DNA from: Pyropia yezoensis
Lineage: Eukaryota; Rhodophyta; Bangiophyceae; Bangiales; Bangiaceae
NCBI GenBank assembly: GCA_009829735.1
Contig: CM020619.1
Location: 10,096,375-10,160,374, forward strand
Direction: 5' to 3'
DNA length: 64,000 nt
The notes beneath the pieces were generated by a model. That model worked only from the letters and a program-made list of their open reading frames with translations. It did no database searches and was not told where the DNA came from. The number at the start of each line of letters is the position of its first letter. The first letter of the stretch is position 1. Made by a program: the position numbers and the translations under genes. Of this stretch, positions 4,078 through 37,178 are shown one piece after another.

Positions 4078-4440
4078 TGTAGGAATATGGTCGGCCGTAT
4101 TGTGACCCTAATATATGGGGGGCTACTTCTAGCCCTTAACTTTCAATTTGAGAGTCCGTACTGGTCACGGTATCTATAAGTTATGTATGACCAGAGGGAC
4201 TTGCATCTTGGGGTGGAGGGTAGTTAGTAGTGTCTCCGAGGGTTTATAACGAGGGGGCCGGCGGCGAATCCACCGCCGGCCAAGGTAGAACAACAAACCC
4301 CTCCCATTTGGGCTCTCATCTTGGTCCCGTGGCTTGCGCTCCAAGGACAGCAACCTTGGCCTCCCGGTGACGTTGGTGCCGATCCCCCTTGGTGAGTGTT
4401 CCCTGAGAGTGGACGTGCGACGGATTCCTATTGTGCTACA
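4078..4440 (+). repeat. 5' LTR of A2 (363 bp)
   Basis: Begins TGTAGGAATATGG and ends TTGTGCTACA. A TATA-like TTTATAA sits at 4243-4249. A perfect 8-bp GC stem (GCCGGCGG / CCGCCGGC, 4257-4280) follows directly, probably in the transcribed leader. It matches 1953-2315 (inverted) and 51684-52045. Confidence 0.95.
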
Positions 4441-4441
4441 T

Positions 4442-4459
4442 TGGTGGAGCAGCAGGGGA
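4442..4459 (+). promoter_or_regulatory. Primer binding site of A2
   Basis: TGGTGGAGCAGCAGGGGA, one base after the LTR end. The TGG start is the complement of a tRNA CCA end. I could not assign the tRNA. Confidence 0.85.
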
Positions 4460-4665
4460 CGGGCTTCCGTCACCCTTGTGGTGACGCCGTCTTCGGCCCT
4501 GGCACACGGATAGGGATCCGGTCCTTTTCTTGTACTCGTGGTGCTGCGATCTGTTCGATTGTTTTGAGTCGTTGCGTTTGACTGCGATCTACGGTTGCTC
4601 TCCCCCAACTACCCCCTCGCTCTCTTATTCGTGGTGACTGTTACGTCGGTTGACTGATTGTGACT

Positions 4666-6843
4666 ATGTATACCCAGGAGACGGGCAACGTTCAAGGTGA
4701 CGGATCGGCGTCGACGCCGACCCCGGAGGTGACTACGGGAACCGAGATCGGTAACCCGATCGACAACATTGAGACGCCGATGCTCTCCGGTGCCGGATCG
4801 ACGTTTGGTACGGCACGGACGGCCGGGGGCGGCGGACCGCCGCAACTGTCCTCTGCCGACCTCACGCCGCCGCCACCTTCACCAGGGGACTCCCTGATGG
4901 CATCATTGGCTCGCATCGAGGCCCGGTTTTCCGGGCTCGACGCCCGTCAAGAGCGTACGGAGGACGCAATGGCCGTGCTGATGTCAGCACGCCATACGAC
5001 GGTACCCCGTCGGGTCCCTCCCACACCGGTACGGTTCGAAGCGGCCGGACTACTTTCGGAGTCCACCAGGGTCAACCCCGGTGTTGCTACTCCTGGACAA
5101 CCCCCGGACACGGCGGGTTATGGATCCGACTCGTCGGCTGAGTTGGAACGTAGCCATACGAAGCGCTACGCTCGGGGCACCCAGAGCGGGCTCCGCGGAC
5201 ATGACCCGGCGGATATTTACGCCGGAACAGAGTCGCAAAGGAGGGGAGGCGGTACCGTCTCGCATTACCCCATCGACGAAGGGAGCCATGCAACTCGGGT
5301 ACCCGACGCGCCGACGCCGGAATTTCCAGCGTCACTGGTTCAAGCGATGACAGCGCAGGTTACTGCGAGCTTACTGAAGCGGATGGAGTCCGAGGAGTTT
5401 ACTCATCAACTGGCCAAGCGACTGGATATCCAGGACGCGGACACGGAGATTGTCAACGAAGTCTTCAGGTCGGTACTGACTCCGTAACGTTATTGTTTGG
5501 AGGACCGATCCACTACCGTATCGGAATCGATGCGCACGACCTCGCACCGAGCGATCCGCTCTATGCAGAACCTTATGAAGGGAGTCCCTATGTTCGGGGG
5601 CCCCAACGGACGTCCGTTGGCAGTCATCGGCTTCTTGACTAGCTTCAAGGCAGCCGCAGACAAGGCGCTCGTCAACGAGGGGCTGGCGCTGGAGATCCTC
5701 CCGTTCTTTGTTGACGAACGGGTCCGAGACATCCTTCGCCAGGCATCCCCGATGCCGGGAATGAGAGTCGCGGCCACCCCCATGGATTACCGTGGGATCC
5801 TCAAGGAGCTGCTGAGCAGTTACCTCAGTGAGGACAAGTGCGAGCACCACTACCGGGCCCTGCGCACTCCCACCGCCCAGAGCTGGGAGGATGAGGAGAT
5901 GTTCGGACGAGGCATTCAAGAGCTCGACTACCAGCTGGGGAAGCTCCTCGGAGAAGGGGAGCTACGAGCCATCCTACTCGCAGGAGTACCCAACTACGTG
6001 CGGATATCCGCACGGGGAGCCAATACGGCTCGGACGAACTTCAGTCGACTGATGCATATGTGCAAGTCCCGAGGGGACGCCTACCGGGTGCTACACCCGG
6101 AATGCGCCTTGGTCCCGAAGCCCAAGGGTGAGGGAAGCAAGCCCAGTCTTACCCCGGTATCGAGGCAAGAGAAGGGGATACGTAAGGCCGCACCAGTACT
6201 GGTGGCGACCGAGCATACCCCTACGGGTGAGGATGAACCTCTAGTCGACCAACAGGGCCACCTGTTGCTACCGGCGACGCCGGTGATTGATGAGCATGGT
6301 ACGGTAGCGTACATCGCCCCGGCTGGGACCCAGTTCCAGGTTAACAAGGGAGCGGGACGGCGCGTCCCGTATATGCGGACTACGGGTTATGCCCCGGTTA
6401 CGGGTAGCCCCCACCAACCCCTGCCGACATGGGCAGTACGTACGGCGGCACCTCCGCACATCGCTGGTAGAACCAACCGGCTGGGGGAGTCCATGTTCCG
6501 GCTGGCACCGGGACCCAAGGCCTATCAAGGGGCGGGCACTCGGGCGCCCGAGGCAGGCAACCGGACCTATGGAGCCAACCCGACGCGGACGCCCGGGACG
6601 GCCGGCACGTCCGGATGTATGTTGTGCGGAGATCCCCAACACTGGGTGTCCGCATGCCCGCTCATCCTGGAGGAGTCTCGACGGGCAGCGGCGCAACGCA
6701 AGGCATCCATTGGTGGGTATCCCGCCAGAGGCCCGGCACCGGGCAGGCAGTAAGCTCCAGGAGGAGTGCTGGCAGTCGAGGAGGCACCTCCTCTCCCGGA
6801 TATCCCAGAAGATAGCACCCAGCCGAGCACGGGAGACGAGTAA
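4666..6843 (+). pseudogene. gag: Gag of A2 with two in-frame stops
   Basis: Capsid/nucleocapsid polyprotein of family A. I start it at ATG 4666 (MYTQETGNVQ), equivalent to the A1 start. A TAA at 5485-5487 and another at 6751-6753 interrupt one continuous frame, and the first is a sense codon in A1. A capsid-like region spans about 5590-6110. A CCHC zinc knuckle, CMLCGDPQHWVSAC (C-x2-C-x4-H-x4-C), lies at about 6617-6658 and should bind RNA in the particle. After the second stop the frame continues with an acidic tail ending STGDE at 6843. That matches the acidic tails ending GNE in gag of B and C, so I place the gag end there. Confidence 0.8.
6831..6837 (+). promoter_or_regulatory. Degenerate -1 frameshift site GGGAGAC
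   Basis: It occupies exactly the place of GGGAAAC in B and C: heptamer, one codon, then the gag stop (TAA 6841-6843). It differs by one base. The -1 frame is open from here to about 7150 and contains the pre-protease segment, so A also seems built for -1 fusion. Whether GGGAGAC is decay or the family's true site cannot be told from one copy. Confidence 0.5.
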
Positions 6844-9199
6844 GAGGAAGGACGACACGGGGTCTCTGGGGTAACCCTAGCAAGCCACCCCGGACTGCCG
6901 CGGGGAAAGCCCCACGGAGAGCGCGGTTGAGCCGACGCCGCATCAACCCCCGGGTACACCTTCCGGCCCCGACGACACGGCGTCAGGGGATTGATGACCA
7001 TCCACCAAGGTTGGGAGGAGAGGACGGGAAGCCCCGTCACATCGAACCAGACAAGGGCCCTGTTCAGGATGCCCGAGCTACACCGGATATCGGTGTAGGC
7101 CACGTGCTGTTTACCTTGGAGAACTTCAAGGTATCAGCCACACTGGGTTGACCCCCAGTCGACCCGGTCGTATTATCCCGTACTGGATACAGGGGCTGGA
7201 CCTAACTTGATCCGGAAGGATACCCTCCCGGACAAGTGGCTCCCGCGAGTCAGAGTTGCTCGGGGACCCACGATCAAGGATGCGAATGGTCGTCTCATTC
7301 GTACGACCGCAGCGATGTCGCTGCAGGTCACCATCGGGGAGCTCACTACGGAAGTTGACTTCCTGGTGTGTGAGACTCTATCTGTGCCCTGCATACTGGG
7401 GTGCACCTTCATCAACGTTCACGTTGATGCAATCCGGCCGGGCTGGAGGACCGTCGAGCTGCAAGAGGCCGACGGGACGAAGAGAGGGCAGACAGCTATC
7501 GTCAGGGACCTGACGTTACAAGGGAGCCACGTTAACGTGGCTGAGGTATACGCCAACGTAGAACCGAAGACACTCCGGCTGGCCAAGCGAACTCGCTTTC
7601 AGCCGCTATCGAAGACCGTCCTCCCGGTTAACTGTGACCTCGCTGGCATCTGCAGAGTCAAGTCCAACCTACGAATCTACAAGCGCCATGGGTTGACCAT
7701 GGCCAATGGTATCGTAGACCTCCCAGCGGGGGGGTCATCACTGCTGGTGATAGCGAACTATCGCCGTTAGGCAGTCACCCTCCCGAAAGGAACAATCATT
7801 GGGATTGCCGAGCTCTACGAAGGAGATATCCTTACCCCTGACAAGGAAGGTCAAGTGGAACCACTTAAGGTGCTGGCGGTCGCCGAGACCACCGAGCAGC
7901 AGCAACCCGATGACGGGAAGCCTAACCCATCCGCGGCTCCGGCGGACATGCCGCCAAAAGACCAAGAAGCCTTGAAGGCACTGGCCGAGGCTGACCTCGA
8001 CCACCTTCCCTCTTCGGTAGCTGAAGGGGTACGACAAATGCTAAGAAAGCATGACGTCATGTGCACCGGCGGGGCTCTGGGTACCATTAGGGCAACCCAA
8101 CACCGGATAGACCTGGTACCAGGGGCACGACCCGCCTGGTCGAAACCGCACCGAGCGGGACCTATTCAACGAGAGATTGTTGATGGATAAGTGAAGAGGA
8201 TGAGCGAAGCTAAGGTGATCCGACCTTCGATGTCGGAGTGGGGCGCCCCAGTCGTTATCGTACCGAAGAAGGATCAGACCCCTCGGTTTTGCATCGATTA
8301 TCGACGCCTCAACTTGGTTACCAAGAAAGACTCATACCCTTTACCAAGGATGGACGAGTGCATCGACTCGCTGGGGGAGGCCACAGTGTTTACCACCATC
8401 GACTGCAATGCCGGGTACTGGCAGATCACAGTTGCGGAAGAGGATATCTCTAAGACGGCGTTCGTTTGTCACAGTGGCGTGTACGAGTTCCTAAGGATGC
8501 CCTTCGGATTGTCCAACGCCCCCGCCACATTCCAACGGGCCATCGACATTATACTGTCGGGAGTCAAGTGGCGTAACTGCCTGGTGTACTTGGACGACGT
8601 CATCGTCTTCTCGCGTAACATGGATGACCATGTGCAACATGTCGACGAGGTACTCACCCTCTTGCGGAACGCCGGGGTAACCCTGCGCCTCAAGAAGTGC
8701 GCCTTCTTCCAGCAGACAGTCGAGTATCTGGGTCACCAGATCACACCAGGTAATCTGGGAGTGCTGGAAGCTAATACCCGGGCACTCCGGGATGCGCGAT
8801 ACCCAACCACCCAGACACAGCTGAAAAGCTTCCTGGGGATGTGCAACGTATACCGACGGTTCGTCAAGGACTTCGCTCGTATAGCCAAACCGTTAACGGT
8901 TCTTACAAGCAGTGCCTTGCCAAAGGTACTCCAACCTCCCTCGCCCAGCGAGGGAGAGGCATTCGAGCTGCTCGAGCAAGCTCTGCTAGCCCCACCCGTG
9001 CTTGCGTTGCCGCATAGACGTGGGACCTTCGTCATCGACGTCGATGCCTGCGACACCCAAGTGGGATGCACCCTGCTACAGGGAGAGACCATCATCGGTA
9101 CCGATAATGCTATCCCGGACCTACATCCGGTAGGGTACTTCAGCCGGACACTCAACCCGGCTGAGCGTAACTATAGTGCCACCGAGCGCGAGTGCCTCG
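6838..9199 (+). pseudogene. pol: Pol of A2, 5' part: protease, RT, start of RNase H
   Basis: The -1 frame reads from the slip site to about 7150 (VLFTLENFKVS, the segment before protease). It then shifts to another frame with the protease motif LDTGAGPNLI near 7180. A TAG at 7768-7770 and a TAA at 8188-8190 interrupt the frame; the A copy at the right end of the window is open at both places. RT follows: FCIDYRRLN, the central DCNAGYWQI, CLVYLDDVIVFSRN with the YLDD catalytic pair near 8590, and the connection domain. The frame is cut in RNase H after TERECL by B1 at 9199 and resumes at 14222. Dead copy. Confidence 0.85.
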
Positions 9200-9668
9200 T
9201 GTGGCAGTATTGACCCCCAGGTAGGGGGGCAACACGTGCCATGCAAGGGGCGGCAGGCCACTAGCCTGATCCGTTCCTCCCCCTGCATTTGGGTCCATAT
9301 TCCCCAAGTTTGGGATAGTTAGCTTAGTAGTAAATCCAACTTGGATTTGAGGGTTTTCTGCATTTATCGTCTTGAATTTTCGTGTGGCCCGGTGGGCAGG
9401 TGCTGGGGTGGGAGATTCTGAGTGGCGAGATTCTGAGGGGACCCTGGGGGGATAAGGGGAGGGACAGCGGGGCTTGGCCCTGCGTCCCCGTCCCGACCAA
9501 GAAACTGTTGGACCACACACCATCCTCTTGTTTGTCCGGGGGGGGTTTGCCCCACAACAGGGACAGAGTGTGTGCGACTTGCACTTCTTCCGGTTCCCCC
9601 GACACGGGAGGCAGCCCTAGCACACCGCCCCAACTTGGGTGCCGTGTGTGCTAGTGGTTTTTGCCACA
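9200..9668 (+). repeat. 5' LTR of B1 (469 bp)
   Basis: TGTGGCAGTATTG...TTTTTGCCACA, with perfect 7-bp terminal inverted repeats. It contains the palindrome AAATCCAACTTGGATTT (9333-9349), a tandem pair of GAGATTCTGAG units near 9413-9437, and a second CCCAACTTGGG (9628-9638). Confidence 0.97.
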
Positions 9669-9670
9669 TT

Positions 9671-9746
9671 TGGTGGAGCAGCAGGGGACAGAGGTAAACT
9701 TTACCTCCGGGTGCACCCGGGTGTAGGGGGCCCTCTGTCTCAGAGG
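9671..9746 (+). promoter_or_regulatory. B1 primer binding site and three-palindrome leader
   Basis: The PBS TGGTGGAGCAGCAGGGGA is at 9671-9688. Three inverted repeats follow back to back: AGGTAAACTTTACCT (9692-9706), CCGGGTGCACCCGG (9707-9720) and CCTCTG-TCT-CAGAGG (9732-9746). Such a stem-loop series just upstream of gag suits an RNA dimerisation or packaging signal (inference). It recurs in the other B copies that keep this region. Confidence 0.7.
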
Positions 9747-9787
9747 AACGGTGGTCTTGGACTGTGTCGTGTGGATCGTTAGCCAAC

Positions 9788-10205
9788 ACGGCTGGATCGG
9801 ACCTCCCGACGTTCGGGAAACTCTCCGGTGACGACTTTACCCCGGCGCCTTTGAATACTGGCCAGACACAGGGTGTACCTGGGGTCGCGGAGGTGCTAGA
9901 GGCACTCCAGCCAGCAGGACCGTGGGTATCGGTGCGGGCGGCATGCCACCCCGACCCAGTCGGGTGTTCACCCTGAGGGTCTTTCTCGGACCGGTGGTTC
10001 GCACTTCGGCCACCGGGTGGTACACTCAAAGGGAACGTCCCAAGGTGAGAGGACTGTCCCCGCGAGATCCACTCGGGTTGGATTCAACTTCGGCATAGAG
10101 CCGTCGCCAACTAGGCGGGTGGAGGACGGCGGACCTTCACTCGTCGGTGATGGGCTCGAGCCTGTGACAGGGGTCGTAGCAAGTTGCTACCCCCGCCACC
10201 CTCAA
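9788..10205 (+). pseudogene. gag: Gag N-terminal remnant of B1
   Basis: It matches the first part of family B gag (compare 32635 downward on the minus strand). The start ATG is changed to ACG at 9788-9790. Similarity runs through the Pro/Gly/Ser-rich N-terminal region to about 10160. It is then lost in a short scrambled stretch, and pol-derived sequence begins near 10220. The capsid domain and zinc knuckle are deleted, so no functional Gag can be made. Confidence 0.8.
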
Positions 10206-10214
10206 AGAAAGTAT

Positions 10215-11354
10215 CTTTGATCGGGAGCCAAGTTCGGCTATATCGACCAACATGAGGGACCGGTAGTAGCGGCCACCCTCAACGCGGGCACGAGTAGCGA
10301 CCCGAGGTCCGGAAAGGAGAAGCACCAAGCCAAGTCGGCCGCCTCGCCTCGTCCCCATGTGAACATGGAGGGTGTTCCACCCAGGTTGAGGGTTCAAGTT
10401 GAACGCCTCTTGGACCAATATCACAAGTTGTGGGATGGTCAATTGGGACTCATGAGAGCCACCCAACACCGGATCGAGTTGAAACCCGGTGTACCCCCTA
10501 TACGCCAACAGTCGTATAGGGGGGGACCCCGTTCAAGGGCCCTCGTCAAGGAGCGCTTCTACAAAACTATTGTTAGGCAGCTGCGCCACTATGTGAGTGA
10601 GCATGTGAAAACGTGGGACCAATACCTTTCTATTCTTACCACTGCCTACAATTCGCAGGTTCACTCATCTACCGGGGAAGTACCCCTCGCTTTTGTGACC
10701 CCCCGTCGCGTGCGGTCTATTGCTGTGCGGCGGTCGCTCCCAACTAGGGAGGATGGTGGCAGTACGCCTACTCCTACTGAGAGTAAGGCGGAGTTCGCTG
10801 CTAGGCTTGAAAAACTCATCCCTAACGTCAGGGCTGAGATGGAAAAAGCACAAAAGCGCTACAAGCGTACCTTTGACAAAAAGGTGCGCAATGCTAAACA
10901 TGTCCCCGAGCAGGGTGACTGGGTGCTGGTACACTCACACACTCCAACTGGGGGTAAGCTGGTATTCCAGACGAAGGGACCGTACCAGGTCCTTCGTACT
11001 GATGGGCGGCGCTTCACCATCGAAAGTGACGATGGGGTCCGCACAGTGAACGGACAGGACGTGATCAAAGTTGCACCACCGCCTGCAGGCGACCCAGCTT
11101 GGGCGCGTGCTTTGGAAGCGTGGCGCCTCCCCTCACTGCCTGCGGCCAAACAGGGCCCGCAGGAGTACGTGTTCGATAAGTTCATCGACCACGGATGGGA
11201 TGAAGACACTGACCGCCTCATGTTGAGGGTGCGTTGGTTTGGCTACAAAGCCAAGGATGACACGTGGGAGTATGTGGAGGACCTTCCCGCTGAGAAGGTC
11301 CGGGCGTACTGTGCCCGGAATGAGATAGACCCTAACAGCCCTCCCTCAACGTGA
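10215..11354 (+). pseudogene. pol: Pol remnant of B1: spacer fused in frame to integrase tail and chromodomain
   Basis: Compared with the full pol at 19915-23898, this keeps residues of about 281-390 (GAKFGYIDQHEGPVV onward) and is joined near 10550 directly to about 1062-1327 (RFYKTIVRQLRH onward). About 670 codons are gone: RT, RNase H, and the integrase zinc finger and DDE core. The junction lies at a short GAGCG microhomology and keeps the frame, so 10359-11354 is open for 331 codons from a Met. It retains the integrase C-terminal segment (TGGKLVFQTKGPYQVL) and the chromodomain (LRVRWFGYKAKDDTWEYVEDL). A chromatin-targeting fragment could still be made, but I have no evidence that it is. 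Confidence 0.8.
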
Positions 11355-11465
11355 GGGAAGGCCGAGCAACAGTGCCAAGAGAGTGCTTCAAGTTGAAGTG
11401 GTACGCAGAGTAGCTTTTAACCACAGCCCTAACCCTCACACTCTCACAACAAAGGCAGCTGCCAA

Positions 11466-13409
11466 CTAGGCACGCATGCTAGACTCTCCCACTCCACGGC
11501 CCTCGCCCTCACGTGGAGGCGAGCGGCGAGACCCACGCCGATAACGGTCTTTACTCGTTGGAGGGGGCGGCGGCTCCAAGTCGGAACCGTCGCGCCCCTC
11601 ACGGTCGCGCAAGTGGCGACGACCGTGGCCACTCTTCTGCCTGGTCTTGCGCGCAAGTTTGCGACGCAGACGCTGGACAGACTCCGTCTCCGACGGGGTA
11701 GAGGACTCCGAAACGGAGTAAGACAACTCGTCTTCCGATACGGAAGGAGAGCGCCGCGAGTGTCGGCGACGACGGCGAGGAGGCGAGTATGCCCGGCTCG
11801 CGCGACGTTTGCCACGCCCAAGTGGGGCTGGCTGGGGCATAATAGCCCCAATGCGAGCCAACTCGGCTGTCATAAACTCCGCCACCGACTCGCAACTCGC
11901 GGTCGCCACTGCAGTACGAACGCGCTCCTCAAGTTGAAGAGTCTCGGAAACTTGAAGGGTCGCGGTCGACGCGGCCAACCAGGAAATGGTGCGCACCAAC
12001 GTGGTGATCATCATCTCCGAGGTTAGAGGCGTGGGCGGCAACACCAACTTGGGGTATACCGTCAGGAGGGTGGCCCCCAAGTTGGGGGACACCGGGGTGG
12101 AAGACTCCACGGCCACGCTGATCGGGATGTTCCCGCGAGGTTGGAAAGGAACAGGAGGAAGCGGAGGGGCCCGCCGAGGTGGCGGTACCCGGGTGTAACT
12201 GCGACCCCGACTTGGGGCCCCCGCAGTGGGTTGAGTCATATGGTCATCATAGGACGGCACGGCCATGACTATGGGCTTGTCCGGGGGTGGCGCAGTGTGG
12301 CGATCCACCCCCGGGGCATACGGGTAGTCCCTGATGCCCAACCCCTCTCGTAGGACCACACGGCCGTCGTGAAGTTCACGAGCGACCCACACGAACTGGC
12401 GAAGTGCGCCATCGTCCTTGGGCCCACGAGTGGGGCGGCGCAACTTGTGCTCAATGCTCTCCCACTCGATAAACTTATGGAGCCGGAGCATCTCCTCAAG
12501 TAGAGTGAGTTGTCCTGATGAGCACCCCTCAGCAACTAGCTGAGGGGTGAGCTGTTCCAAACCTTGGAAGAGCCGGAGGGGGAGATGCCAGAGCATCCCC
12601 CGCCGCTGAACACAGGACACCCAGGTCGACATGACCTCGAGGAGCCACTGGGTGGCCAACATGGCCCACACCAGGTGATCAGGGGCAGCCGTCAACATGA
12701 CGGAGCCGAAGTGGTCAAGCAACCGTGGCAACAACGCCGGGAACCCGTAGGGGACCTCAACTTGAGGCCACGACTCAGGCTTCTTCGGATAGTACTGCTC
12801 CTTACTGGCAGCAGACTGTTGAGGAAACTCAAGTTGAGCCGAGGTCACCAAGTAGGGACCTCGCCGGAAGTCTTTCTCCATCCGCACATCAAAGTGATGA
12901 GTGTGCGGATCGGCCTCGTGGAGGTACGGTGGGCGAGTTGCCACAGCGTCCCTCGTGAAGGTCGGCAAGTCGCCGGGACCCGGGATAGTTCCCCCGCGGT
13001 CCACCATGGCCTTGGCACGCTGAACGTCCTCAACCTCCTCATCGTCCAGGAAGGCAAACTGGTCCGTCCTGAAGCCGGCAGGGAACCCGACCCTACGGGG
13101 ATACTTCTCCCGTAGGCGGTCCCATACCCGACCCATCGCTGCGCCGAGTCGGCCACAGCGAAGAACAGTCAGCCCCTCCTCATAGAGAGGCCAAGCGGGG
13201 TAGAACCACCGCCCCAAGGCCTCACGCGGAACAACTTGTCCCGCCTCCGGGAAAGACCCCGCCGTCAACCCAAAGCCGGGTGACGCGGGAGTCCCATCCC
13301 CCGGAGCGATCGCGGAGCCCCCGCCGGAAGTCCCGGCGGGCGCTGCACCGTAGGAGGTGTCCTCCATACGTTCGTCAAGAGAGTCGGTCTCCATCCCCGG
13401 GGTCGCCAT
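11466..13409 (-). CDS. Antisense ORF of B1 (aORF-B), 647 aa, unknown function
   Basis: Open minus-strand gene lying tail-to-tail with pol; the stops are 111 bp apart. I choose ATG 13409-13407 (MATPGMETDSLDERM). It sits in a GCCATGG context, and the frame upstream lacks an ATG. Layout: an acidic/low-complexity N-terminus; a conserved core with WFYPAWPLYEEGLTVLR, EQYYPKKPESWPQVEVPYGF and MLATQWLLEVM; a Pro-rich middle; and a basic Arg/Ser-rich tail (SPPRRRRRHSRRSP) that could bind nucleic acid or act as a nuclear signal. No known domain is recognised. It stays open while the same element lost most of gag and pol. The core resembles the antisense ORFs of families A and C. Confidence 0.85.
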   Translation of the reverse strand: MATPGMETDSLDERMEDTSYGAAPAGTSGGGSAIAPGDGTPASPGFGLTAGSFPEAGQVVPREALGRWFYPAWPLYEEGLTVLRCGRLGAAMGRVWDRLREKYPRRVGFPAGFRTDQFAFLDDEEVEDVQRAKAMVDRGGTIPGPGDLPTFTRDAVATRPPYLHEADPHTHHFDVRMEKDFRRGPYLVTSAQLEFPQQSAASKEQYYPKKPESWPQVEVPYGFPALLPRLLDHFGSVMLTAAPDHLVWAMLATQWLLEVMSTWVSCVQRRGMLWHLPLRLFQGLEQLTPQLVAEGCSSGQLTLLEEMLRLHKFIEWESIEHKLRRPTRGPKDDGALRQFVWVARELHDGRVVLREGLGIRDYPYAPGVDRHTAPPPDKPIVMAVPSYDDHMTQPTAGAPSRGRSYTRVPPPRRAPPLPPVPFQPRGNIPISVAVESSTPVSPNLGATLLTVYPKLVLPPTPLTSEMMITTLVRTISWLAASTATLQVSETLQLEERVRTAVATASCESVAEFMTAELARIGAIMPQPAPLGRGKRRASRAYSPPRRRRRHSRRSPSVSEDELSYSVSESSTPSETESVQRLRRKLARKTRQKSGHGRRHLRDREGRDGSDLEPPPPPTSKDRYRRGSRRSPPREGEGRGVGESSMRA

Positions 13410-13734
13410 GGCTCTCCCCGAGTTGGGGAGAGACGCTCTGGCTATCGCGGCACGAGACCCGCCTCGAGTTGAGGGGGACTCGGATCGTGGGTATACGGGT
13501 GGCCTCCCCAGCGTGGGGCGGCCCAGTGGAAGGTGAAGGGGAGGTGGTGGTGATGGTGAAGTGTGAACCGAGGAGAGCAAGCTGCCGAGTGGGCAAGCTT
13601 GAGGAGAGGGGCGGTCAACGTGACCGCCTCCACATCCGCGTTACGTACTCGATGGGGGACAGCAAGTCGCGCCCCCAACGCCGAGACGTGCGTTTACGCA
13701 CCCCCTCACAGGGCCGACCGGAACGGTCGGAACT

Positions 13735-13747
13735 GAGGAGAGGGGAG
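13735..13747 (+). promoter_or_regulatory. Polypurine tract of B1
   Basis: GAGGAGAGGGGAG directly before the 3' LTR, the expected plus-strand primer. The same tract lies inside the LTR of the other B copies. Confidence 0.8.
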
Positions 13748-14216
13748 TGTGGCAGTATTGACCCCCAGGTAGGGGGGCAACACGTGCCATGCAAGGGGCG
13801 GCAGGCCACTAGCCTGATCCGTTCCTCCCCCTGCATTTGGGTCCATATTCCCTAAGTTCGGGATAGTTAGCTTAGTAGTAAATCCAACTTGGATTTGAGG
13901 GTTTTCTGCATTTATCGTCTTGAATTTTCGTGTGGCCCGGTGGGCAGGTGCTGGGGTGGGAGATTCTGAGTGGCGAGATTCTGAGTGGACCCTGGGGGGA
14001 TAAGGGGAGGGACAGCGGGGCTTGGCCCTGCGTCCCCGTCCCGACCAAGAAACTGTTGGACCACACACCATCCTCTTGTTTGTCCGTGGGGGGTTTGCCC
14101 CACAACAGGGACAGAGTGTGTGCGACTTGCACTTCTTCCGGTTCCCCCGACACGGGAGGCAGCCCTAGCACAACGCCCCAACTTGGGTGCCGTGTGTGCT
14201 AGTTGTTTTTGCCACA
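13748..14216 (+). repeat. 3' LTR of B1 (469 bp)
   Basis: It matches 9200-9668 with a few substitutions by eye (for example near 9313 versus 13861, and GAGGGGACC versus GAGTGGACC), so the insertion is fairly recent. Confidence 0.97.
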
Positions 14217-14221
14217 CCTCG

Positions 14222-15660
14222 GAGTCATATGGGCACTGCAACTGCTTCGGCCATACCTGGAAGGTTCCAGGTTCATCGTAAGGTCCGACCACGAACCTTT
14301 ACGATGGCTTCTCAACCTTGGTGACAAGGATTCCGACAGCCACGGTCGGCTAGCCCGGTGGAGACTGAAGATGGCCGAGCACGACTACCGGACCATATAT
14401 AAGGCCGGCTCCACCCATCATTTGGGGGACGCGCTGTCGCGACTCGATACAACGAGCGAGGATACCCGACAGGTGAACGAGGACATCCCCGTGGTACCGG
14501 TTTGCATGGTGGGTGATGCCACCCAAGGTATGGTTGACCATACCATGGCACACCTTGCGTGCCCATTGACCCTCGCGGACTTCGGCGAGGCACAGGCCAA
14601 TGACGATGACTGTAAACGCCATCGTGCTAACCTCCTGGCCGGCACGGCCGGCATGTTCTCCGAGAACGAGGGCGGACTCATATACCGGCGGGCACCCGCC
14701 GACGGACGGCATCAAGTCGTGGTTCCCGTGTCCTTACGGCAGACCGTCATGGAACGAGAACACGAGAACCCCACAGCCGGACACCCGGGGGGTTCGCGCA
14801 TGTTCGCAGCAATGCGAAGGTTCTTCTACTGGCCAGCTATGGCCGTCGACGTAATCGACCACGTGCGGGGATGCCACCCGTGTGCACGGAATCGCATGAG
14901 TCTCCATAGGCGGGCATCCGCTATTAATCTGTTCCCCCCGGACGTGCCCAACGAGCAAGTCGCTATCGACATTGTCGAGCCGCTTCCGGGAACGGAAGAA
15001 GGGAACAGGTACATCCTGGTCATGTCGGACCGCTTTACTAAGCTGACAAGGGCAGTAGAAATCCCGAAAGATACGGCCTACACGATCATGAACGCAGTGG
15101 TTGACCACTGGATCAGTGCTTACGGAGTAATGAAACAACTCCTCTCCGATAACGGAGCAAACCTTACGTCAGCATTCTGCACTAAGGTACTGGGCATGTT
15201 CGGTATCGAACCCCGTCGGGCATCCGACTACCACCCGCAATCCAACGGGCAGGTGGAGCGGTTCAACCGCACCATCGTGAAGATGCTCCAATGCTATGTG
15301 GCGGAGCACACGAAGACGTGGGACAGGCTTCTGTCCGTCTTGACCCTGGCATACAATGCCAGGCCACATCGGAGTACCAACATCGCCCCACTGGAATGGG
15401 TCATGCCAATGGGCGTCGGGAACCTGACGCTGCCACCGGGCAGGTGCACTCGGTGTGACATACCGAAGGGCCGACCGGCCGAACGGATCCACTTAGCTTG
15501 GTTGGCCAAGCTATCGTGGATAATTCCGAAGCTCAACCTACCAGGACCCTGGTACGTCAAGGTTATGTGGGTCGGATACGACTCACCCACCTGGGAACAG
15601 GCGGCGAATATACCCCGCCAACTCCTCATGCCTTACTTGAGGCGACGACGCCTACTGTAA
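14222..15660 (+). pseudogene. pol: Pol of A2, 3' part: RNase H, integrase, shortened tail with chromodomain-like end
   Basis: It continues the frame cut at 9199 (GVIWALQLLRPYLEGSRF). RNase H residues include RSDHEPLRW. Integrase has the zinc finger HENPTAGHPGGSRMFAAMRRFFYW...CHPCARNR and catalytic positions in DIVEPLPG, LSDNGANLTSAF and NGQVERFNR. Relative to B pol, about 120 residues between the integrase core and the end are missing: after LTLPPGRCTR the sequence jumps to YVKVMWVGYDSPTWEQAANIP, a chromodomain-like end. The stretch is open, but as the tail of the broken A2 pol it is not functional. Confidence 0.85.
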
Positions 15661-16111
15661 CAACCCAACCGACACCGACTTCGGCTGTGGGGGGGTGAGG
15701 CTTATACCTACTAAGTAGGGTGTCACATGGATTCGGCAAGACTTAGGTTCACTAAGTTGGAGCGAGCTTAGGCGAACTAAGTAAGCTACTGACTTTTACA
15801 AGATTACTTGAAGGAGATGACTAACTCCGACAATTTCAAAGTAACCTGAGGCTTACACCAAGGTAAACCTTCAGCCATGAGGCAAGTGACGGACCAAGGA
15901 AGGTTGACCTGCATGAGTATTAACCAACCAGGATGGGTTGGGGGATGCGGGAAAGAACCGAAGCAAGCCACGACTAAGTCAGACGGGGTACTCCCCAATG
16001 GCAGGCATTGGTATCATGCAAACGCCCCAGCGGGGGAGGAGTTTATACTCACGACTACCCGGCCACCATAAGGGTCACCGGGGCCCTCTCCCTCACAAAC
16101 AATAGCACTCC
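15661..16111 (+). other. Spacer between pol and antisense ORF of A2; no gene
   Basis: This 451-bp stretch is AT-richer than its flanks and separates the convergent stops of pol and aORF-A. It contains CTAAGT/ACTAAG-type repeats near 15710-15785. I see no coding frame that I can support. It may hold the convergent 3' ends of both transcripts. Confidence 0.5.
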
Positions 16112-17050
16112 TCAGTGGGTAGACCCACTGCCCGAGCGAGGCCACTCACGCGTAAGCGCGTACACCTTCATGCGCCACCGGTCGGCAATCTCACGACGGT
16201 CAATCACCCGAGTTACCTCGGTGCATAGCTGGACGAGGATGCTGCGGCCGGCCTCAACGTCCGCCAGAGCGGACTGAAGGCTGTCCAGCACGCCACCGAA
16301 GCAACGTGCGGACCCAACCAGCGCAGCCCCTGGGGGGATATCCCCCCAGCTAGCAGAGAGACCCTCCCGCATTGCGCGGGCAACAAGGGCGTCAACGCCC
16401 TCATACCAGAGACGGGGACCCCCGTCATTTAGGACAGGGGCGGGAGGTGACACTGGCGCAGCCAGAGGAGCCACAGGAGCCGACACGGCTACCACCGGAG
16501 CCGGTGGCACCTGACACGAGGCCCGGTAGGACCCTACTGAAGGGGCCCCACCGTAAACCCGGCGGGGCTCGGCCCGACGACGGGACATCTCACGCTCCCC
16601 ACCCGCAGAGCCCCACTCTCGGGGACGACGGCCAACCGCCACCGGTATCGGGTTGCCGAATTACGGGGCAAGGACCTGAAGAGGGTCATAAATAACCATG
16701 GGAATACCCAGGTCAGCAACAGCCTCGGTGGACGCCCACCCATGGCAATTGGGCTCCCCCGGCTGAGTACGCCGGATACGCAACGAGTGACGAGGCAAGG
16801 GGGAAGACCCAGCGTGCGGGTCCCGGTACGGGGGAAGGGCCAACACCCCAGCCCAGCTCACGGCATCGTGAACAGCCAGCAGGGCCTCGAACTCCCGGGC
16901 CAACCCGGTCTTGGCGGCTATCATGTCCACGCCGAACTGCTCGATGTGCCGACGGACACCCGTCGGAAGATGAAACAGGCGCCCCTGCCGGCGGACGGAC
17001 AGCAAGAAGGAGGAAGCCTGCCCGAGGGTAACCTCAAGGGTGAAGATACC
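16112..17050 (-). pseudogene. Antisense ORF of A2 (aORF-A), C-terminal part
   Basis: The reading frame enters from 33228 once the B element at 17051-33222 is removed. It reads GIFTLEVTLGQASSFLL, LFHLPTGVRRHIEQFGVDM, then an in-frame TAA at 16661-16663. It continues in the same frame through an Ala/Pro-rich linker to LDSLQSALADVEAGRSILVQ and a stop at 16112. The last segment resembles the C-terminal part of the C-family antisense ORF (LNDVVDRVFACADSGQ...GLAQQWSETFTGFQRR). That similarity and the shared position behind pol mark it as the same kind of gene. One stop and the insertion break it. Confidence 0.65.
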
Positions 17051-17518
17051 TGTGGCAAAAACCACTCGCACACACAGTACCCAAGTTGGGGCGGTGTGCG
17101 AGGGCTGCCTCCCGTGTCGGGGGAACCGGAAGAAGTGCAAGTCGCACACACTCTATCCCTGTTGTGGGGCAATCCCCCCACGGACAAACAAGAAGATGGT
17201 GTGTGGTCCAACAGTTTCTTGGTCGGGACGGGGACGCAGGGCCAAGCCCCGCTGTCCCTCCCCTTATCCCCCCAGGGTCCACTCAGAATCTCGCCACTCA
17301 GAATCTCCCACCCCAGCACCTGCCCACCGGGCCACACGAAAATTCAAGACGATAAATGCAGAAAACCCTCAAATCCAAGTTGGATTTACTACTAAGCTAA
17401 CTATCCCGAACTTAGGGAATATGGACCCAAATGCAGGGGGAGGAACGGATCAGGCTAGTGGCCTGCCGCCCCTTGCATGGCACGTGTTGCCCCCTACCTG
17501 GGGGTCAATACTGCCACA
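17051..17518 (-). repeat. 3' LTR of nested B element (468 bp)
   Basis: TGTGGCAAAAACC...ACTGCCACA on the plus strand. It differs from 32755-33222 at three sites near the right end (CGAACTTAGG versus CAAACTTGGG, and CAGGGGG versus CACGGGG). Confidence 0.97.
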
Positions 17519-17859
17519 CTCCCCTCTCCTCAGTTCCGACCGACCCGGTCGGCCCTGTGAGGGGGTGCGTAAACGCACGTCTCGGCGTTGGGGGGGACGC
17601 GACTTGCTGTCCCCCCTTGAGTACGTAACGCGGATGTGGAGGCGGTCACGTTGGCCGCCCCTCTCCTCAAGCTTGCCCACTTGGCAGCTTGCTCTCCTCG
17701 GTTCACACCTCACCACCACCACCACTTCTCCTTCACCTTACACGGGGCCACCCCACGCTGGGGAGGCCACCCGTTTACCCACGATCCGAGTCCCCCTCAA
17801 CTCGAGGCGGGTCTCGTGCCGCGATAGCCAGGACGTCTCTCCCCAACTTGGGGAGAGCC

Positions 17860-19803
17860 ATGGCGACTCCGGGAGTGGAGACGGACTCTCTCGATGAGCG
17901 TATGGAGGACACCTCCTACGGTGCAGCGCCTGCCGGGACTTCCGGCGAGGGCTCCGCGATCGCTCCGGGGGGTGGGACTCCCGCGTCACCCGGCTTTGGG
18001 TTGACGGCAGGATCTCCCCAGGAGGCGGGACAAGTTGTCCCGCGTGAGGCCTTGGGGCGGTGGTTTTACCCCGCTTGGCCTCTGTATGAGGAGGGGTTGA
18101 CTGTTCTTCGCTGTGGCCGACTCGGCGCAGCGATGGGTCGGGTATGGGACCGCCTACGGGAGAAGTATCCCCGTAGGGTCGGGTTCCCTGCCGGCTTCAG
18201 GACGGACCAGTTTGCCTTCCTGGACGACGAGGAGATCGAGGACGTGCAGCGGGCCAAGGCCATGGTGGACCGCGGGGGAACTATCCCGGGTCCCGGCGAC
18301 TTGCCGACCTTCACTTGGGACGCGGTGGCAACTCGCCCCCCGTACCTTCACGAGGCCGATCCGCACACTCATCACTTTGATGTGCGGATGGAGAAGGACT
18401 TCCGGCGAGGTCCCTACTTGGTGACCTCGGCTCAACTTGAGTTTCCTCAGCAGTCTGCTGCCAGTAAGGAGCAATACTACCCGAAGAAGCCCGAGTGGTG
18501 GCCTCAAGTTGAGGTCCCCTACGGGTTCCCGGCATTGTTGCCACGGTTGCTTGACCACTTCGGCTCCGTCATGTTGACGGCTGGCCCTGATCATCTGGTG
18601 TGGGCCATGTTGGCCACCCAGTGGCTCCTCGAGGTCATGTCGACCTGGGTGTCATGTGTTCAGCGGCGGGGGATGCTCTGGCATCTCCCCCTCCGGCTCA
18701 TCCAGGGTTTGGAACAGCTCACCCCTCAGCTAGTTGCTGAGGGGTGCTCGTCAGGACAACTCACTCTACTTGAGGAGATGCTCCGCCTCCATAAGTTTAT
18801 CGAGTGGGAGAGCATTGAGCACAAGTTGCGCCGCCCCACTCGGGGGCCCAAGGACGATGGCGCACTTCGCCAGTTCGTATGGGTCGCTCGTGAACTTCAC
18901 GACGGCCGTGTGGTCCTACGAGAGGGGTTGGGCATCGGGGACTACCCGTATGCCCCGGGGATGGATCGTCACACTGCGCCACCCCGGGATAAGCCCATAG
19001 TTATGGCTGTGCCCTCATATGATGACCATATGACTCAACCTACTGCGGGGGCCCCAAGTCGGGGTCGCAGTTACACCCGGGTACCGCCACCTCGGCGTGC
19101 CCCTCCGCTTCCTCCTGTTCCTTTCCAGCCTCACGGGAACATCCCGATCAGCGTTGCCGTGGAGTCATCCACACCGGTGTCTCCCAACTTGGGGGCCACC
19201 CTCCTGACGGTATACCCCAAGTTGGTGTTACCGCCCACGCCTCTAACCTCAGAGATGATGATCACCACGTTGGTGCGCACCATTTCCTGGTTGGCCGCGT
19301 CGACCGCAACCCTCCAAAGTTCCGAGACTCCTCAACTTGAGGAGCGCGTTCGTACTGCAGTGGCGACCGCGAGTTGCGAGTCGGTGGCGGAGTTTATGAC
19401 GGCCGAGTTGGCTCGCATTGGGGCTATTATGCCCCAGCCAGCCCCACTTGGGCGTGGCAAGCGTCGTGCGAGCCGGGCATACTCGCCTCCTCGCCGTCGT
19501 CGCCGTCACTCGCGGCGCTCTCCCTCCGTGTCGGAAGACGAGTTGTCTTACTCCGTCTCGGAGTCCTCTACCCCAGCGGAGACGGAGTCTGTCCAGCGTC
19601 TGCGTCGCAAACTTGCGCGCAAGACCAGGCAGAAGAGTAGCCACGGTCGGCGCCACTTGCGCGACCGTGAGGGGCGCGACGGTTCCGACTTGGAGCCGCC
19701 GCCCCTTCCAACGAGTGGAGACCGTTATCGGCGTGGGTCTCGCCGCTCGCCTCCACGTGAGGGCGAGGGCCGTGGAGTGGGAGAGTCTAGCATGCGTGCC
19801 TAG
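17860..19803 (+). CDS. Antisense ORF of the nested B element (aORF-B), 647 aa
   Basis: Intact and almost identical to the B1 gene. The start is ATG 17860 (GCCATGG context; MATPGVETDSLDERM) and the stop TAG is at 19801-19803, 111 bp from the pol stop on the other strand. The order is acidic start, conserved core (about residues 60-360), Pro-rich linker with PNLGATLLTVYPKLVLP, a helical stretch (LQSSETPQLEERVRTAV), then a basic RS-rich tail. No membrane segment, signal peptide or recognised domain. As the element's pol is also intact, this is the best copy to study. Expression would need a promoter between 17518 and 17860 or in the LTR. None is obvious to me. Confidence 0.87.
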   Translation: MATPGVETDSLDERMEDTSYGAAPAGTSGEGSAIAPGGGTPASPGFGLTAGSPQEAGQVVPREALGRWFYPAWPLYEEGLTVLRCGRLGAAMGRVWDRLREKYPRRVGFPAGFRTDQFAFLDDEEIEDVQRAKAMVDRGGTIPGPGDLPTFTWDAVATRPPYLHEADPHTHHFDVRMEKDFRRGPYLVTSAQLEFPQQSAASKEQYYPKKPEWWPQVEVPYGFPALLPRLLDHFGSVMLTAGPDHLVWAMLATQWLLEVMSTWVSCVQRRGMLWHLPLRLIQGLEQLTPQLVAEGCSSGQLTLLEEMLRLHKFIEWESIEHKLRRPTRGPKDDGALRQFVWVARELHDGRVVLREGLGIGDYPYAPGMDRHTAPPRDKPIVMAVPSYDDHMTQPTAGAPSRGRSYTRVPPPRRAPPLPPVPFQPHGNIPISVAVESSTPVSPNLGATLLTVYPKLVLPPTPLTSEMMITTLVRTISWLAASTATLQSSETPQLEERVRTAVATASCESVAEFMTAELARIGAIMPQPAPLGRGKRRASRAYSPPRRRRRHSRRSPSVSEDELSYSVSESSTPAETESVQRLRRKLARKTRQKSSHGRRHLRDREGRDGSDLEPPPLPTSGDRYRRGSRRSPPREGEGRGVGESSMRA

Positions 19804-19914
19804 TTGGCAGCTGCCTTTGTTGTGAGAGTGTGAGGGTTAGGGCTGTAGTTTAAAGCCACTCTGCGTACCACTTCGACTTGAAGCACTCTCTTGGCACTGT
19901 TGCTCGGCCTTCCC

Positions 19915-22900
19915 TCACGTTGAGGGAGGGCTGTTAGGGTCTATCTCGTTCCGGGCACAGTACGCCCGGACCTTCTCAGCAGGAAGGTCCTCCACATACT
20001 CCCACGTATCATCCTTGGCTTTGTAGCCAAACCAACGCACCCTCAACATGAGGCGGTCAGTATCCTCATCCCAGCCGTGGTCGATGAACTTGTCGAACAC
20101 GTACTCCTGCGGGCCCTGTTTGGCTGCAGGCAGCGAGGGCAGGCGCCACGTTTTCAAAGCACGCGCCCAAGCTGGGTCGCCTGCAGGCGGTGGTGCAACT
20201 TTGACCACGTCCTGTCCGTTCACTGTGCGGACCCCATCGTCACTTTCGATGGTGAAGCGCCGCCCATCAGTACGAAGGACCTGGTACGGCCCCTTCGTCT
20301 GGAACACCAACTTACCCCCAGTTGGGGTGTGTGAGTGGACCAATACCCAGTCACCCTGCTCGGGGACATGCTTGGCGTTGCGCACCTTTTTGTCAAAGGT
20401 ACGCTTGTAGCGCTTTTGTGCTTTGTCCATCTCAGCCCTGACTTTAGGGATGAGGTTTTCAAGCCTAGCAGCGAACTCCGCCTTACTCTCAGTAGGAGTA
20501 GGCGTACTGCCACCATCCTCCCCAGTTGGGAGCGGCCGCCGCACGGCAATAGACCGCACGCGACGGGGGGTCACAAAAGCGAGGGGTACTTCCCCGGTAG
20601 ATGAGTGAACCTGCGAATTGTAGGCAGTGGTCAGAATAGAAATGTATTGGTCCCACGTCTTCACGTGCTCACTCACATAATGGCGCAGCTGCCTAACAAT
20701 AGTTTTGTTGAAGCGCTCCACCTGCCCATTAGTTTGTGGGTGGTAGGGGGTGGCATAGTTTGCCTTAACCCCCAACATATCCAGCACTCCTTGAAACAGT
20801 ACAGACGCAAATTGCGGTCCATTGTCCGATAGTGTACTATCCGGAATGCCATACGCGGCAACCCAGTGATCTAGGAAGGCTGACACGACCGACATGGCCG
20901 TGATCTCTGCCAGTGGGATCGCTCGCGTAAGTTTCGTGAAGCGGTCACAGATGACCAGGAGGTACTGGTTGCCCTCCTCGGTCACTGGCAGTGGCCCAAG
21001 GATGTCCATCGCCAACGCGGCGAAGGGCTCCTTGGCCGGGAACAATAGCATAGCCGTAGTAGGCCGCCGTTCCATCAGACGGTTCTGTGCACAACTTGTG
21101 CAGGCAGCCACCCAACTGTAGATGTCCACCACCATGGACGGCCAGTAGTACCTGGTCCTCAGGGTCTGGTACAGTTTACTAGACCCCAGGTGTCCACCCG
21201 TGGGAGCGTTATGCTCCCTCTCAAGGATACTGTCCTTGAGGGATGCGGGGACGACAAGTTGTTCGGTCCCCTGGAATACCCCCCTCCTCATGAGGAGGCC
21301 ATCGTCTCCCAGGAAGAACCGCGTCTCCGCCACTGTATCCAGGGTATCCCTCTGCGACTTGCAGAAGGGATCCTCGGCCTGGGCCTTCACTACTTCGTCC
21401 AGGGACAGGGGCAAGTACTTCTTGTTCCCTGGCGCCTCGGGATTCAACGCCTGACCCGAGCGCGTGACTACCCCCACGATGGGGATGTCCTCATCGACTG
21501 GGGTGGTGTCCAGTCCCTCGGTAGGTACCCGAGAGAGGCCGTCGGCAAGGGCATGTTGCCTGCCAGGTCGGTACTCAATATCAAAGTTGAAGGGTGCAAG
21601 TCGCACCCTCCACCGGTTGAGACGAGTGTTCGTACAGTCCGTCTTGAAGATGAACTGCAACGCGCGGTGGTCACAGCGGATGAGGAACTTCTCACCCTCT
21701 AGGTAGTGACGAAGTGACGTCACCGCCCATACCACTGCGAGTCCTTCCAACTCGGTGACTCCGTAGTTCTTCTCGGCCGAGTTTAGCCCCTTGCTGAAGT
21801 ATCCCACCGGCAAGTACTCCTTGTCCGGCTGTTGCTGAAGCAACACACAACCAAGTTGGTCGTAGCTAGCGTCCACATCCAGGATGTAGTGGCCTCCCAA
21901 CCTGGGAATAGCCAGGATAGGGGGCTTCAGCAGAAGGTCCCGAAGAGTCTCAAAGGATTCCTGCTCCACCCGACTTGGGGGAGGCAGGTTCTTCGGTAGC
22001 GTTGAGCTCACTAACTCATTCAACGGCTTCGCCACTTTGGCGAAGCCCTTAGTGAAACGTCGGTACACGTTACACATCCCGAGGAAGCTCCTCATCTGGG
22101 TTTGGGTCCGGGGGTACTGAGCCTTGCGGATGGCCCTCAAGTTTTTCTCGTTGACACTGAGACGCCCCGGACGGACAACATGTCCCAAGTACTCCACCTC
22201 TTGAGTGAAGAGGTGGCACTTACTCGCCTTCAGTGACACTCCGGCGTCAGCAAGTAGCTTGAACACCTGGCCAAGATGGCCAATGTGTTCCTCCGGACTT
22301 CGGGAGAACACAATGATATCGTCTAGGTACACGAGACAGATCTGCCACCGTACTCCGGCCAGAATCATGTCCATAGCGCGCTGGAAAGTTGCCGGCGCGT
22401 TACACAGGCCAAACGGTAGACGCTTGCACTGGTAGGTACCACAGTGACAGGTAAAGGTAGTTTTATGCCTGTCCTCCGGGGCAATGGGAATTTGCCAGTA
22501 CCCCGCGTTACAGTCCAGGGTAGAGAACACGTTTGCCTCCCCCAGAGAGTCCAGACAGTCATCCATCCGAGGTAGGGGATAACTATCCTTCACCGTGCTC
22601 TCGTTGAGCTTACGGTAGTCGATACAGAACCGGGGGGTCCCATCAACTTTGGGGACGATCACCACCGGACTCGCCCACTCGGCGTTGCTGGCCTCGATCA
22701 CATCGAGGGCCTCCATGCGAGCAACTTGCTCCTTAACGAGGGCCCTTGAACGGGGTCCCCCCCTATACGGTTGTTGGCGTATAGGGGGCGCACCGGGTTT
22801 CAACTCGATCCGGTGTTGGGTAGCTCTCATGAGTCCCAATTGACCATCCCACAACTTGTGATATTGGTCCAAGAGGCGTTCAACTTGAACCCTCAACCTG

Positions 22901-25830: not shown

Positions 25831-25929
25831 GTTGGCTAACGATCCGTATGACACGGTCCAAGTCCACCGTTCCTCTGAGACAGAGGGCCCCCTACACCCG
25901 GGTGCACCCGGAGGTAAAGTTTACCTCTG

Positions 25930-25947
25930 TCCCCTGCTGCTCCACCA
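25930..25947 (-). promoter_or_regulatory. Primer binding site (B, first copy)
   Basis: Complement of TGGTGGAGCAGCAGGGGA, two bases inside the LTR end at 25950. The leader palindromes lie at about 25871-25928. Confidence 0.8.
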
Positions 25948-25949
25948 AA

Positions 25950-26353
25950 TGTGGCAAAAACCACTCGCACACACAGTACCCAAGTTGGGGCGGTGTGCGA
26001 GGGCTGCCTCCCGTGTCGGGGGAACCGGAAGAAGTGCAAGTCGCACACACTCTATCCCTGTTGTGGGGCAATCCCCCCACGGACAAACAAGAAGATGGTG
26101 TGTGGTCCAACAGTTTCTTGGTCGGGACGGGGACGCAGGGCCAAGCCCCGCTGTCCCTCCCCTTATCCCCCCAGGGTCCACTCAGAATCTCGCCACTCAG
26201 AATCTCCCACCCCAGCACCTGCCCACCGGGCCACACGAAAATTCAAGACGATAAATGCAGAAAACCCTCAAATCCAAGTTGGATTTACTACTAAGCTAAC
26301 TATCCCGAACTTAGGGAATATGGACCCAAATGCAGGGGAGGAACGGATCAGGC
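25950..26353 (-). repeat. Partial B LTR running into the assembly gap
   Basis: It matches 17051 onward for 404 bp, with one homopolymer difference, up to the first N. It is closer to the 3' LTR at 17051 than to the 5' LTR at 32755. This should be explained before the overlap interpretation is accepted. Confidence 0.9.
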
Positions 26354-32635: not shown

Positions 32636-32734
32636 GTTGGCTAACGATCCGTATGACACGGTCCAAGTCCACCGTTCCTCTGAGACAGAGGGCCCCCTAC
32701 ACCCGGGTGCACCCGGAGGTAAAGTTTACCTCTG

Positions 32735-32752
32735 TCCCCTGCTGCTCCACCA
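32735..32752 (-). promoter_or_regulatory. Primer binding site of nested B element
   Basis: Complement of TGGTGGAGCAGCAGGGGA, two bases from the LTR. The three leader palindromes follow it toward gag (about 32677-32731). Confidence 0.85.
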
Positions 32753-32754
32753 AA

Positions 32755-33222: not shown

Positions 33223-33227
33223 ATACC

Positions 33228-37158: not shown

Positions 37159-37160
37159 TT

Positions 37161-37178
37161 TGGTGGAGCAGCAGGGGA
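37161..37178 (+). promoter_or_regulatory. Primer binding site of B4
   Basis: TGGTGGAGCAGCAGGGGA two bases after the LTR. The first two leader palindromes follow; the third is split by the insertion at 37229. Confidence 0.85.

What the first reader, a model, noticed from the sequence alone, without database searches (positions are those of the whole stretch)
11466..13409. A long antisense gene sits between pol and the 3' LTR in every family of retrotransposon here
Families A, B and C each carry an ORF of roughly 650 codons on the strand opposite gag-pol, always after pol and before the 3' LTR, stop facing stop (111 bp apart in B, about 146 bp in C, 451 bp in A). Copies: 11466-13409, 17860-19803, 53719-55662 (B), 45196-47211 (C), 33228-34658 plus 17050-16112 (A). 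Antisense ORFs in this place are known from a few plant Ty3/gypsy elements (Grande gene 23, RIRE2-type) and antisense genes from retroviral 3' LTRs (HBZ), but I know of none with this product. A shared antisense gene suggests a regulator that the elements need.
Basis: partly seen in the sequence, partly recalled or inferred. Interest (0 to 1): 0.92.

Follow-up and report, generated by a model that had tools for sequence, protein, structure and literature searches.

The report
Antisense gene in seaweed jumping elements
Retrotransposon families in what looks like the nori seaweed genome carry an extra gene that reads backwards between their enzymes and their right end; its protein sequence is under selection, but its job is unknown.

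Summary
The observation largely holds. The window (by scaffold sizes, Pyropia yezoensis) is a nest of Ty3/gypsy elements. Families B and C carry 647- and 671-codon antisense ORFs between pol and the 3' LTR (shuffle maxima 359 and 369). Copies 11466-13409, 17860-19803 and 45196-47211 are open; 53719-55662 has one stop and the window's A copy two. B and C proteins are homologous over a ~170-aa core; A shows weaker, collinear similarity. dN/dS between B window copies is 0.12-0.26, like pol in the pair compared (0.21 against 0.20). Listed genome copies without a stop: B 68 of 68, C 64 of 66, A N-part 72 of 96 rows (lists favour intact copies). No match to Pfam, solved structures or plant Transposase_28. 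The layout is a known kind (antisense ORFs of Grande, RIRE2, Retand, Boty). New here: an apparent red-algal host, chromodomain-like pol, an unrelated protein, and a gag-pol-deleted derivative (40 junction places listed). Its three copies read keep the antisense ORF (two were fetched for having it) and an in-frame chromodomain remnant. Best explanation: an accessory regulator expressed antisense; transcription, localisation and function are inferred.

The parts
45196..47211 (-). Antisense ORF of family C, 671 aa, intact
   Evidence: 64 of 66 listed genome copies without stop; 79 syn: 55 nonsyn or stop in 29 loci
38420..47928 (+). Family C element: LTRs 38420-38992 and 47356-47928 (identical), flanks GCGGA on both sides, gag 39202-40962, pol 41148-44795 (in-frame stop, frame on to 45050)
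11466..13409 (-). Antisense ORF of B1, 647 aa, intact, inside a gag-pol-deleted element
9200..14216 (+). B1, 5-kb non-autonomous element: LTRs 9200-9668 and 13748-14216 (98.7% identical), target duplication CCTCG
   Evidence: junction in 40 listed places including this one
10365..11354 (+). In-frame fusion ORF of B1 (329 aa): pol residues 276-391 joined to 1061-1327 (integrase C-terminus and chromodomain-like end)
17860..19803 (+). Antisense ORF of B2, 647 aa, intact
17051..33222 (-). B2 element (minus strand), flanks ATACC on both sides; contains an N gap 26354-26853 and a 6.3-kb near-identical overlap, probably an assembly duplication of one element
19915..23898 (-). pol of B2 (RT, RNase H, integrase, chromodomain-like end)
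53719..55662 (+). Antisense ORF of B3, one in-frame stop at codon 226
33228..34658 (-). N-terminal part of the family A antisense ORF (one in-frame stop near its end in this copy)
16112..17050 (-). C-terminal part of the family A antisense ORF, cut off by the B2 insertion (one in-frame stop in this copy); first 129 aa weakly collinear with the B core
4078..52046 (+). Family A element holding the nested B1, B2, B4 and C insertions; LTRs 4078-4440 and 51684-52046, flanks GCTGG/GCTGA (4 of 5 bases alike)

Best explanation
These Ty3/gypsy elements carry a third, accessory protein gene on the strand opposite gag-pol, between pol and the 3' LTR. It was present in the common ancestor of families B and C and probably A. 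The protein has a conserved, predicted helical core (~170 aa), a proline-rich linker and a faster-evolving tail, which in B is strongly basic. Most likely it is made from an antisense mRNA started in the spacer or in the 3' LTR, enters the nucleus, and helps the element's own expression or integration, in the way proposed for Grande gene23 and retroviral antisense or accessory proteins. Shown: position, orientation, openness, homology of B and C, codon-level purifying selection, many open copies, presence in a deleted derivative. Inferred: homology of A (moderate support), antisense transcription, nuclear location, regulatory role.
For: ORF lengths far above shuffles. dN/dS 0.12, 0.26, 0.21 for the three B window pairs, with differences by codon position 12/12/59, 33/27/75 and 33/29/90; the other five frames give higher ratios in every pair and 11-29 codon positions with a stop. 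The last 2460 bases of pol of B2/B3 give 0.20. By region of B, the N part (codons 1-150) gives 0.12-0.13, the core (151-340) 0.07-0.20, the linker 0.13-0.27, the basic tail 0.22-0.48. C loci: 79 syn: 55 nonsyn or stop, where 26-30% syn is expected (expectation); P 1e-13. Homology B-C E 2e-8, profile E 2.5e-6 over 177 columns; A piece collinear with B. Open copies genome-wide. P0003, at 43% identity to C, finds nothing closer than 40-43% among the 110 best places listed in this genome, so it probably comes from another species. B tail: 33 K/R in the last 120 residues. Grande GENE23 is nuclear and has its own promoter, as reported in PMC7264820.
Against: No transcript or protein data. No domain match, so 'regulator' rests on analogy. 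C has 14 K/R in its last 120 residues and far fewer basic clusters than B. The loci fetched were the best-scoring protein hits, which favours intact and conserved copies. Structure models are poor (mean pLDDT 42 and 60) with no significant Foldseek match. The A N-part alone matches neither B nor C (E 0.34 and 0.46).
Confidence: 0.5

Rival explanations
1. The antisense protein is a structural or packaging partner (particle or nucleoprotein component) rather than a nuclear regulator: the helical core binds Gag or the genome and the basic tail binds RNA.
For: Helical core in weak models; basic tail in B; constraint like pol for one copy pair.
Against: No detectable relation to the elements' own Gag (HHalign E 0.32 and 0.09); antisense expression would uncouple it from Gag production (inference).
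Confidence: 0.2
2. The gene restrains its own element: its antisense RNA and/or its product limits copy number (self-limitation, as antisense products are known to do in some yeast Ty1 lineages; recalled, no call).
For: Two kilobases of the sense genome RNA would be complementary to the presumed mRNA; PMC7264820 discusses dsRNA control.
Against: Pure antisense-RNA control would not keep the amino-acid sequence; elements that lost the gene would be expected to spread, yet open copies are common. Copies without the gene were not searched for.
Confidence: 0.12
3. The region is kept mainly for cis-acting DNA or RNA signals, and the open frame rides along.
For: Present in the gag-pol-deleted derivative.
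Against: Third-position excess and dN/dS 0.12-0.26 are the signature of a protein; the aORF-LTR spacer next to it varies (79-100% in ungapped comparison).
Confidence: 0.05

Closest known systems
Antisense additional ORFs (aORF-3R) of plant Ty3/gypsy elements: Grande gene23, RIRE2, Retand ORF4, PvRetro13; and fungal Boty (reviewed in PMC7264820, parts 1 and 2 of 3 read)
   Same: Antisense ORF between pol and 3' LTR, kept in most copies with conservation like other element proteins, no similar genes reported outside elements, function unknown.
   Different: The review's examples are angiosperm and fungal elements; here the host is apparently a red alga, pol of B ends in a chromodomain-like sequence, and the protein has no Transposase_28 match.
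Retand lineage with TRP28 (PMC11963269: abstract, Background, Discussion and part 1 of 2 of the structure section read)
   Same: Long pol-3'LTR region with antisense ORFs; some recently active clusters lack gag or parts of pol yet keep TRP28.
   Different: Retand is reported as non-chromovirus, in eudicots and Liliopsida and not in other plant groups; the TRP28 HMM has no match in this genome at E <= 10.
HBZ / APH-2, antisense genes of HTLV (details recalled; named in PMC11963269)
   Same: Antisense gene at the 3' end; antisense promoter in the 3' LTR reported for HTLV (PMC7264820).
   Different: HBZ is a bZIP protein (recalled); no Pfam family matched here.

Membership tests
Antisense aORF (aORF-3R) class of Ty3/gypsy elements | ORF antisense to gag-pol, between pol and 3' LTR | tested here: met
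Antisense aORF (aORF-3R) class of Ty3/gypsy elements | Present in most copies, conserved like other element proteins | tested here: inconclusive
   conservation met: dN/dS 0.21 against 0.20 in pol for the B2/B3 pair; 'most copies' not measured: 68 of 68 B and 64 of 66 C rows are open, but the lists hold only the best hits
Antisense aORF (aORF-3R) class of Ty3/gypsy elements | Transcribed antisense from its own promoter | not testable with these tools
   no expression data held
Retand / Grande TRP28 aORF family | Transposase_28 domain (PF04195) in the antisense protein | tested here: not met
   no Pfam match at E <= 10; PF04195 finds nothing in the genome at E <= 10
Retand / Grande TRP28 aORF family | Non-chromovirus pol | tested here: inconclusive
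   chromodomain-like end in B, PF00385 E 1.4e-4, 22.2 bits, under the 25.1 cut-off; no RT tree was built
Chromovirus | Chromodomain at the integrase C-terminus | tested here: inconclusive
   B below curated cut-off; similar residues follow the stop in C (by eye); no Chromo match in the A piece
Ty3/gypsy (Metaviridae) | RT, RNase H, then integrase; LTRs, primer site, target duplication | tested here: met
   domain order; TG...CA LTRs, TTGGTGGAGC primer site, 5-bp duplications
HBZ-type antisense gene | bZIP domain | tested here: not met
   no Pfam family at E <= 10
Env-like third gene | Sense orientation | tested here: not met
   antisense in every window copy examined

The most novel reading that the evidence does not exclude
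The 5-kb derivative is a two-gene satellite: it discarded most of gag, protease, RT and the integrase core but kept two proteins, an in-frame fusion ending in the chromodomain-like sequence and the antisense protein. These two would work together (chromatin targeting plus an antisense-coded partner) for the element that carries them, while replication enzymes are borrowed from full B elements.
Probability: 0.15. Interest if true: 0.78.

Novelty: new variant of a known kind. Interest (0 to 1): 0.55.

Why it matters
Antisense extra genes have been noted in flowering-plant and fungal elements without a known function. A protein family with no detected relation to those, shared by distant element families in what appears to be a red alga and constrained about as much as pol in the pair compared, would suggest that such genes arose more than once and meet a recurrent need of Ty3/gypsy elements. 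The gag-pol-deleted derivative is a natural deletion: what such elements keep may show what they cannot borrow. The genome is compact and assembled to chromosome scale, so the question is directly testable with strand-specific RNA data.

Tried and rejected
Chance ORF in GC-rich DNA: rejected. Shadow of a sense gene on the other strand: rejected; the opposite-strand frames carry 11-29 codon positions with a stop and higher dN/dS, though one of them, whose third positions coincide, is also low at 0.22-0.35. Antisense copy of gag: no relation found. TRP28 kinship: a G...LP-helix pattern looked similar to my recollection of TRP28, but no HMM match. Retroviral or phage source: 35 and 102 pattern stretches in viral and prokaryote contigs, none a relative. 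PDB by sequence: only weak hits, best E 0.036 to a Rieske protein in the proline-rich part. Structure: two low-confidence models, Foldseek best E 1.1. Selection after the deletion in the B1 derivative: not decidable, because the remnant pol shows the same low ratio (0.11) as the antisense ORF (0.12), so most of that divergence predates the deletion or was exchanged with full elements. One search read minus-strand loci in the wrong orientation; its stop counts for those loci are an artefact, corrected.

Full report
Where this is. The assembly has 107.5 Mb in 11 contigs. C1 is 43.59 Mb and C2 34.33 Mb, and C3 reaches at least 29.2 Mb. These match the published Pyropia yezoensis scaffolds of 43.6, 34.3 and 29.4 Mb (PMC7423979, passages and section 6 read). 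A phycobilisome protein match on C1 fits a red alga. The name is my inference; the tools give none.

Anatomy. One old family A element (LTRs 4078-4440 and 51684-52046) holds nested insertions: B1 at 9200-14216 (target duplication CCTCG), B2 at 17051-33222 (ATACC), and a truncated B4 from about 36690 that was itself hit by C at 38420-47928 (LTRs identical over 573 bp, duplication GCGGA). The C and B2 duplications were read from the letters printed; the script's own test sat one or more bases off. A, B and C share the start of their primer-binding site, TTGGTGGAGCAGCAGGGGA. B2 contains an N gap and a 6.3-kb stretch repeated at 99.7%, probably an assembly duplication of one element.

The antisense ORFs. 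Two B copies (11466-13409, 17860-19803) and the C copy (45196-47211) are open for 647, 647 and 671 codons. The third B copy has one stop. The window's A gene is split by B2 and has two stops. Shuffled pol-LTR regions reach at most 359 and 369 codons in 300 trials each.

Genome-wide. With the B protein as query, 68 of 68 scored places span 1-647 without a stop. With C, 64 of 66. With the A N-part, 72 of 96 rows without a stop (two rows are pieces of one place). With the distant relative P0003, 98 of 110. These lists score the best candidates only and include the window's own copies, so they are lower bounds on number and biased to intact copies.

Selection. The three window copies of B were not chosen by score. 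Their syn:nonsyn counts are 60:23, 74:60 and 90:61, dN/dS 0.12, 0.26 and 0.21. Third positions carry most changes. The other five frames give higher ratios in every pair (lowest 0.22, 0.35, 0.28, always the opposite-strand frame whose third positions coincide) and 11-29 codon positions with a stop. The last 2460 bases of pol of B2/B3 give 73:51, 0.20. Among 30 fetched B loci there are 45 syn and 8 nonsyn distinct differences from L005. In 29 C loci there are 79 syn and 55 nonsyn or stop differences from the window copy; 26-30% syn is expected without selection. The fetched loci were the top protein matches, which lowers their nonsyn counts. By region in B, the N part gives 0.12-0.13, the core 0.07-0.20, the linker 0.13-0.27 and the basic tail 0.22-0.48; the core is the lowest in one of three pairs and the N part in two.

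One gene family. B and C align at 23% over 166 aa (E 2e-8; profile E 2.5e-6 over 177 columns). The A piece 16664-17050 aligns to B residues 260-319 (BLASTP E 1e-5 in a three-protein set; HHalign E 7e-4, probability 26). The A N-part shows no match on its own. So B-C homology is firm and A probable. Best local identity between B and C is 46% for pol, 32% for gag and 23% for the antisense protein, so the last is the least alike.

Relatives elsewhere. Three searches of 5.8 billion proteins gave P0001 (96%), P0002 (97%), P0003 (43%), P0004, P0005 and P0006. Only the roughly 8,000 candidates sharing most words were scored each time. The sources do not name species. P0003 finds only 40-43% relatives in this genome, so it probably comes from another species. 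No relatives were found in viral or prokaryote contigs, and no Pfam family at E <= 10.

The deleted derivative. B1 lacks most of gag, the protease, RT and RNase H regions and most of integrase: only gag residues 2-127 (broken) and pol 276-391 and 1061-1327 are found. Its double junction (10050-10650) is found over 600 or 601 of 601 bases in 40 of 40 scored places at 97-100%, the window's own included; L026 carries it too but is not among the 40, so the list is incomplete. Six of these 40 lie 819 bp from one of the 68 listed open antisense ORFs; the ORF state beside the others, bar the window's own, is unknown because the matching search did not complete. Three copies could be read (window B1, L002, L026). 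All have the 647-codon antisense ORF; L002 and L026 were fetched because they have it, so only B1 is an unselected case. All three also have an open 329-codon fusion of pol residues 276-391 with 1061-1327, ending in the chromodomain-like sequence, for which they were not selected. L026 has an antisense ORF identical to that of full element L005 while its remnant pol differs by 12 syn and 2 nonsyn changes, which suggests exchange between full and deleted elements. Whether selection acts on the derivative itself is undecided.

Mechanism. I favour an accessory regulator translated from an antisense mRNA. Codon selection shows a protein. The B tail is basic (33 K/R in 120 residues). The review PMC7264820 reports that Grande GENE23 is nuclear and has its own promoter. 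C is less basic (14 K/R in its last 120), so nuclear entry is weaker for C. The predicted core is helical but the models are poor.

Known or new. Antisense ORFs in this place are an acknowledged kind (PMC7264820, PMC11963269). In the listings of my searches (openly licensed papers only, most papers not opened) I saw no report of one in red algal elements; older Porphyra retrotransposon papers, which I recall exist, were not seen. I rate it a new variant of a known kind.

Noticed in passing
window 9200-14216: A 5-kb gag-pol-deleted B derivative with its own target duplication; its deletion junction occurs in at least 40 genome places.
   Followed up: partly
window 10365-11354: In-frame fusion of a pol linker to integrase C-terminus and chromodomain-like end, open in all three copies read.
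   Followed up: partly
window 20060-33159: 6.3-kb stretch repeated at 99.7% on both sides of an N gap (26354-26853), probably a scaffold duplication of one element.
   Followed up: no
window 48538-51448 and 57969-60879: 2.9-kb inverted copies at 99.6% identity of part of a B element, suggesting a recent local duplication.
   Followed up: no
window 38996-39014, 9670-9688, 4441-4459: The three families share the same primer-binding start TTGGTGGAGCAGCAGGGGA although their pol proteins are only 40-54% identical; the primer tRNA was not identified.
   Followed up: no
L026: Deleted derivative whose antisense ORF is identical to that of a full element, pointing to exchange between elements.
   Followed up: partly
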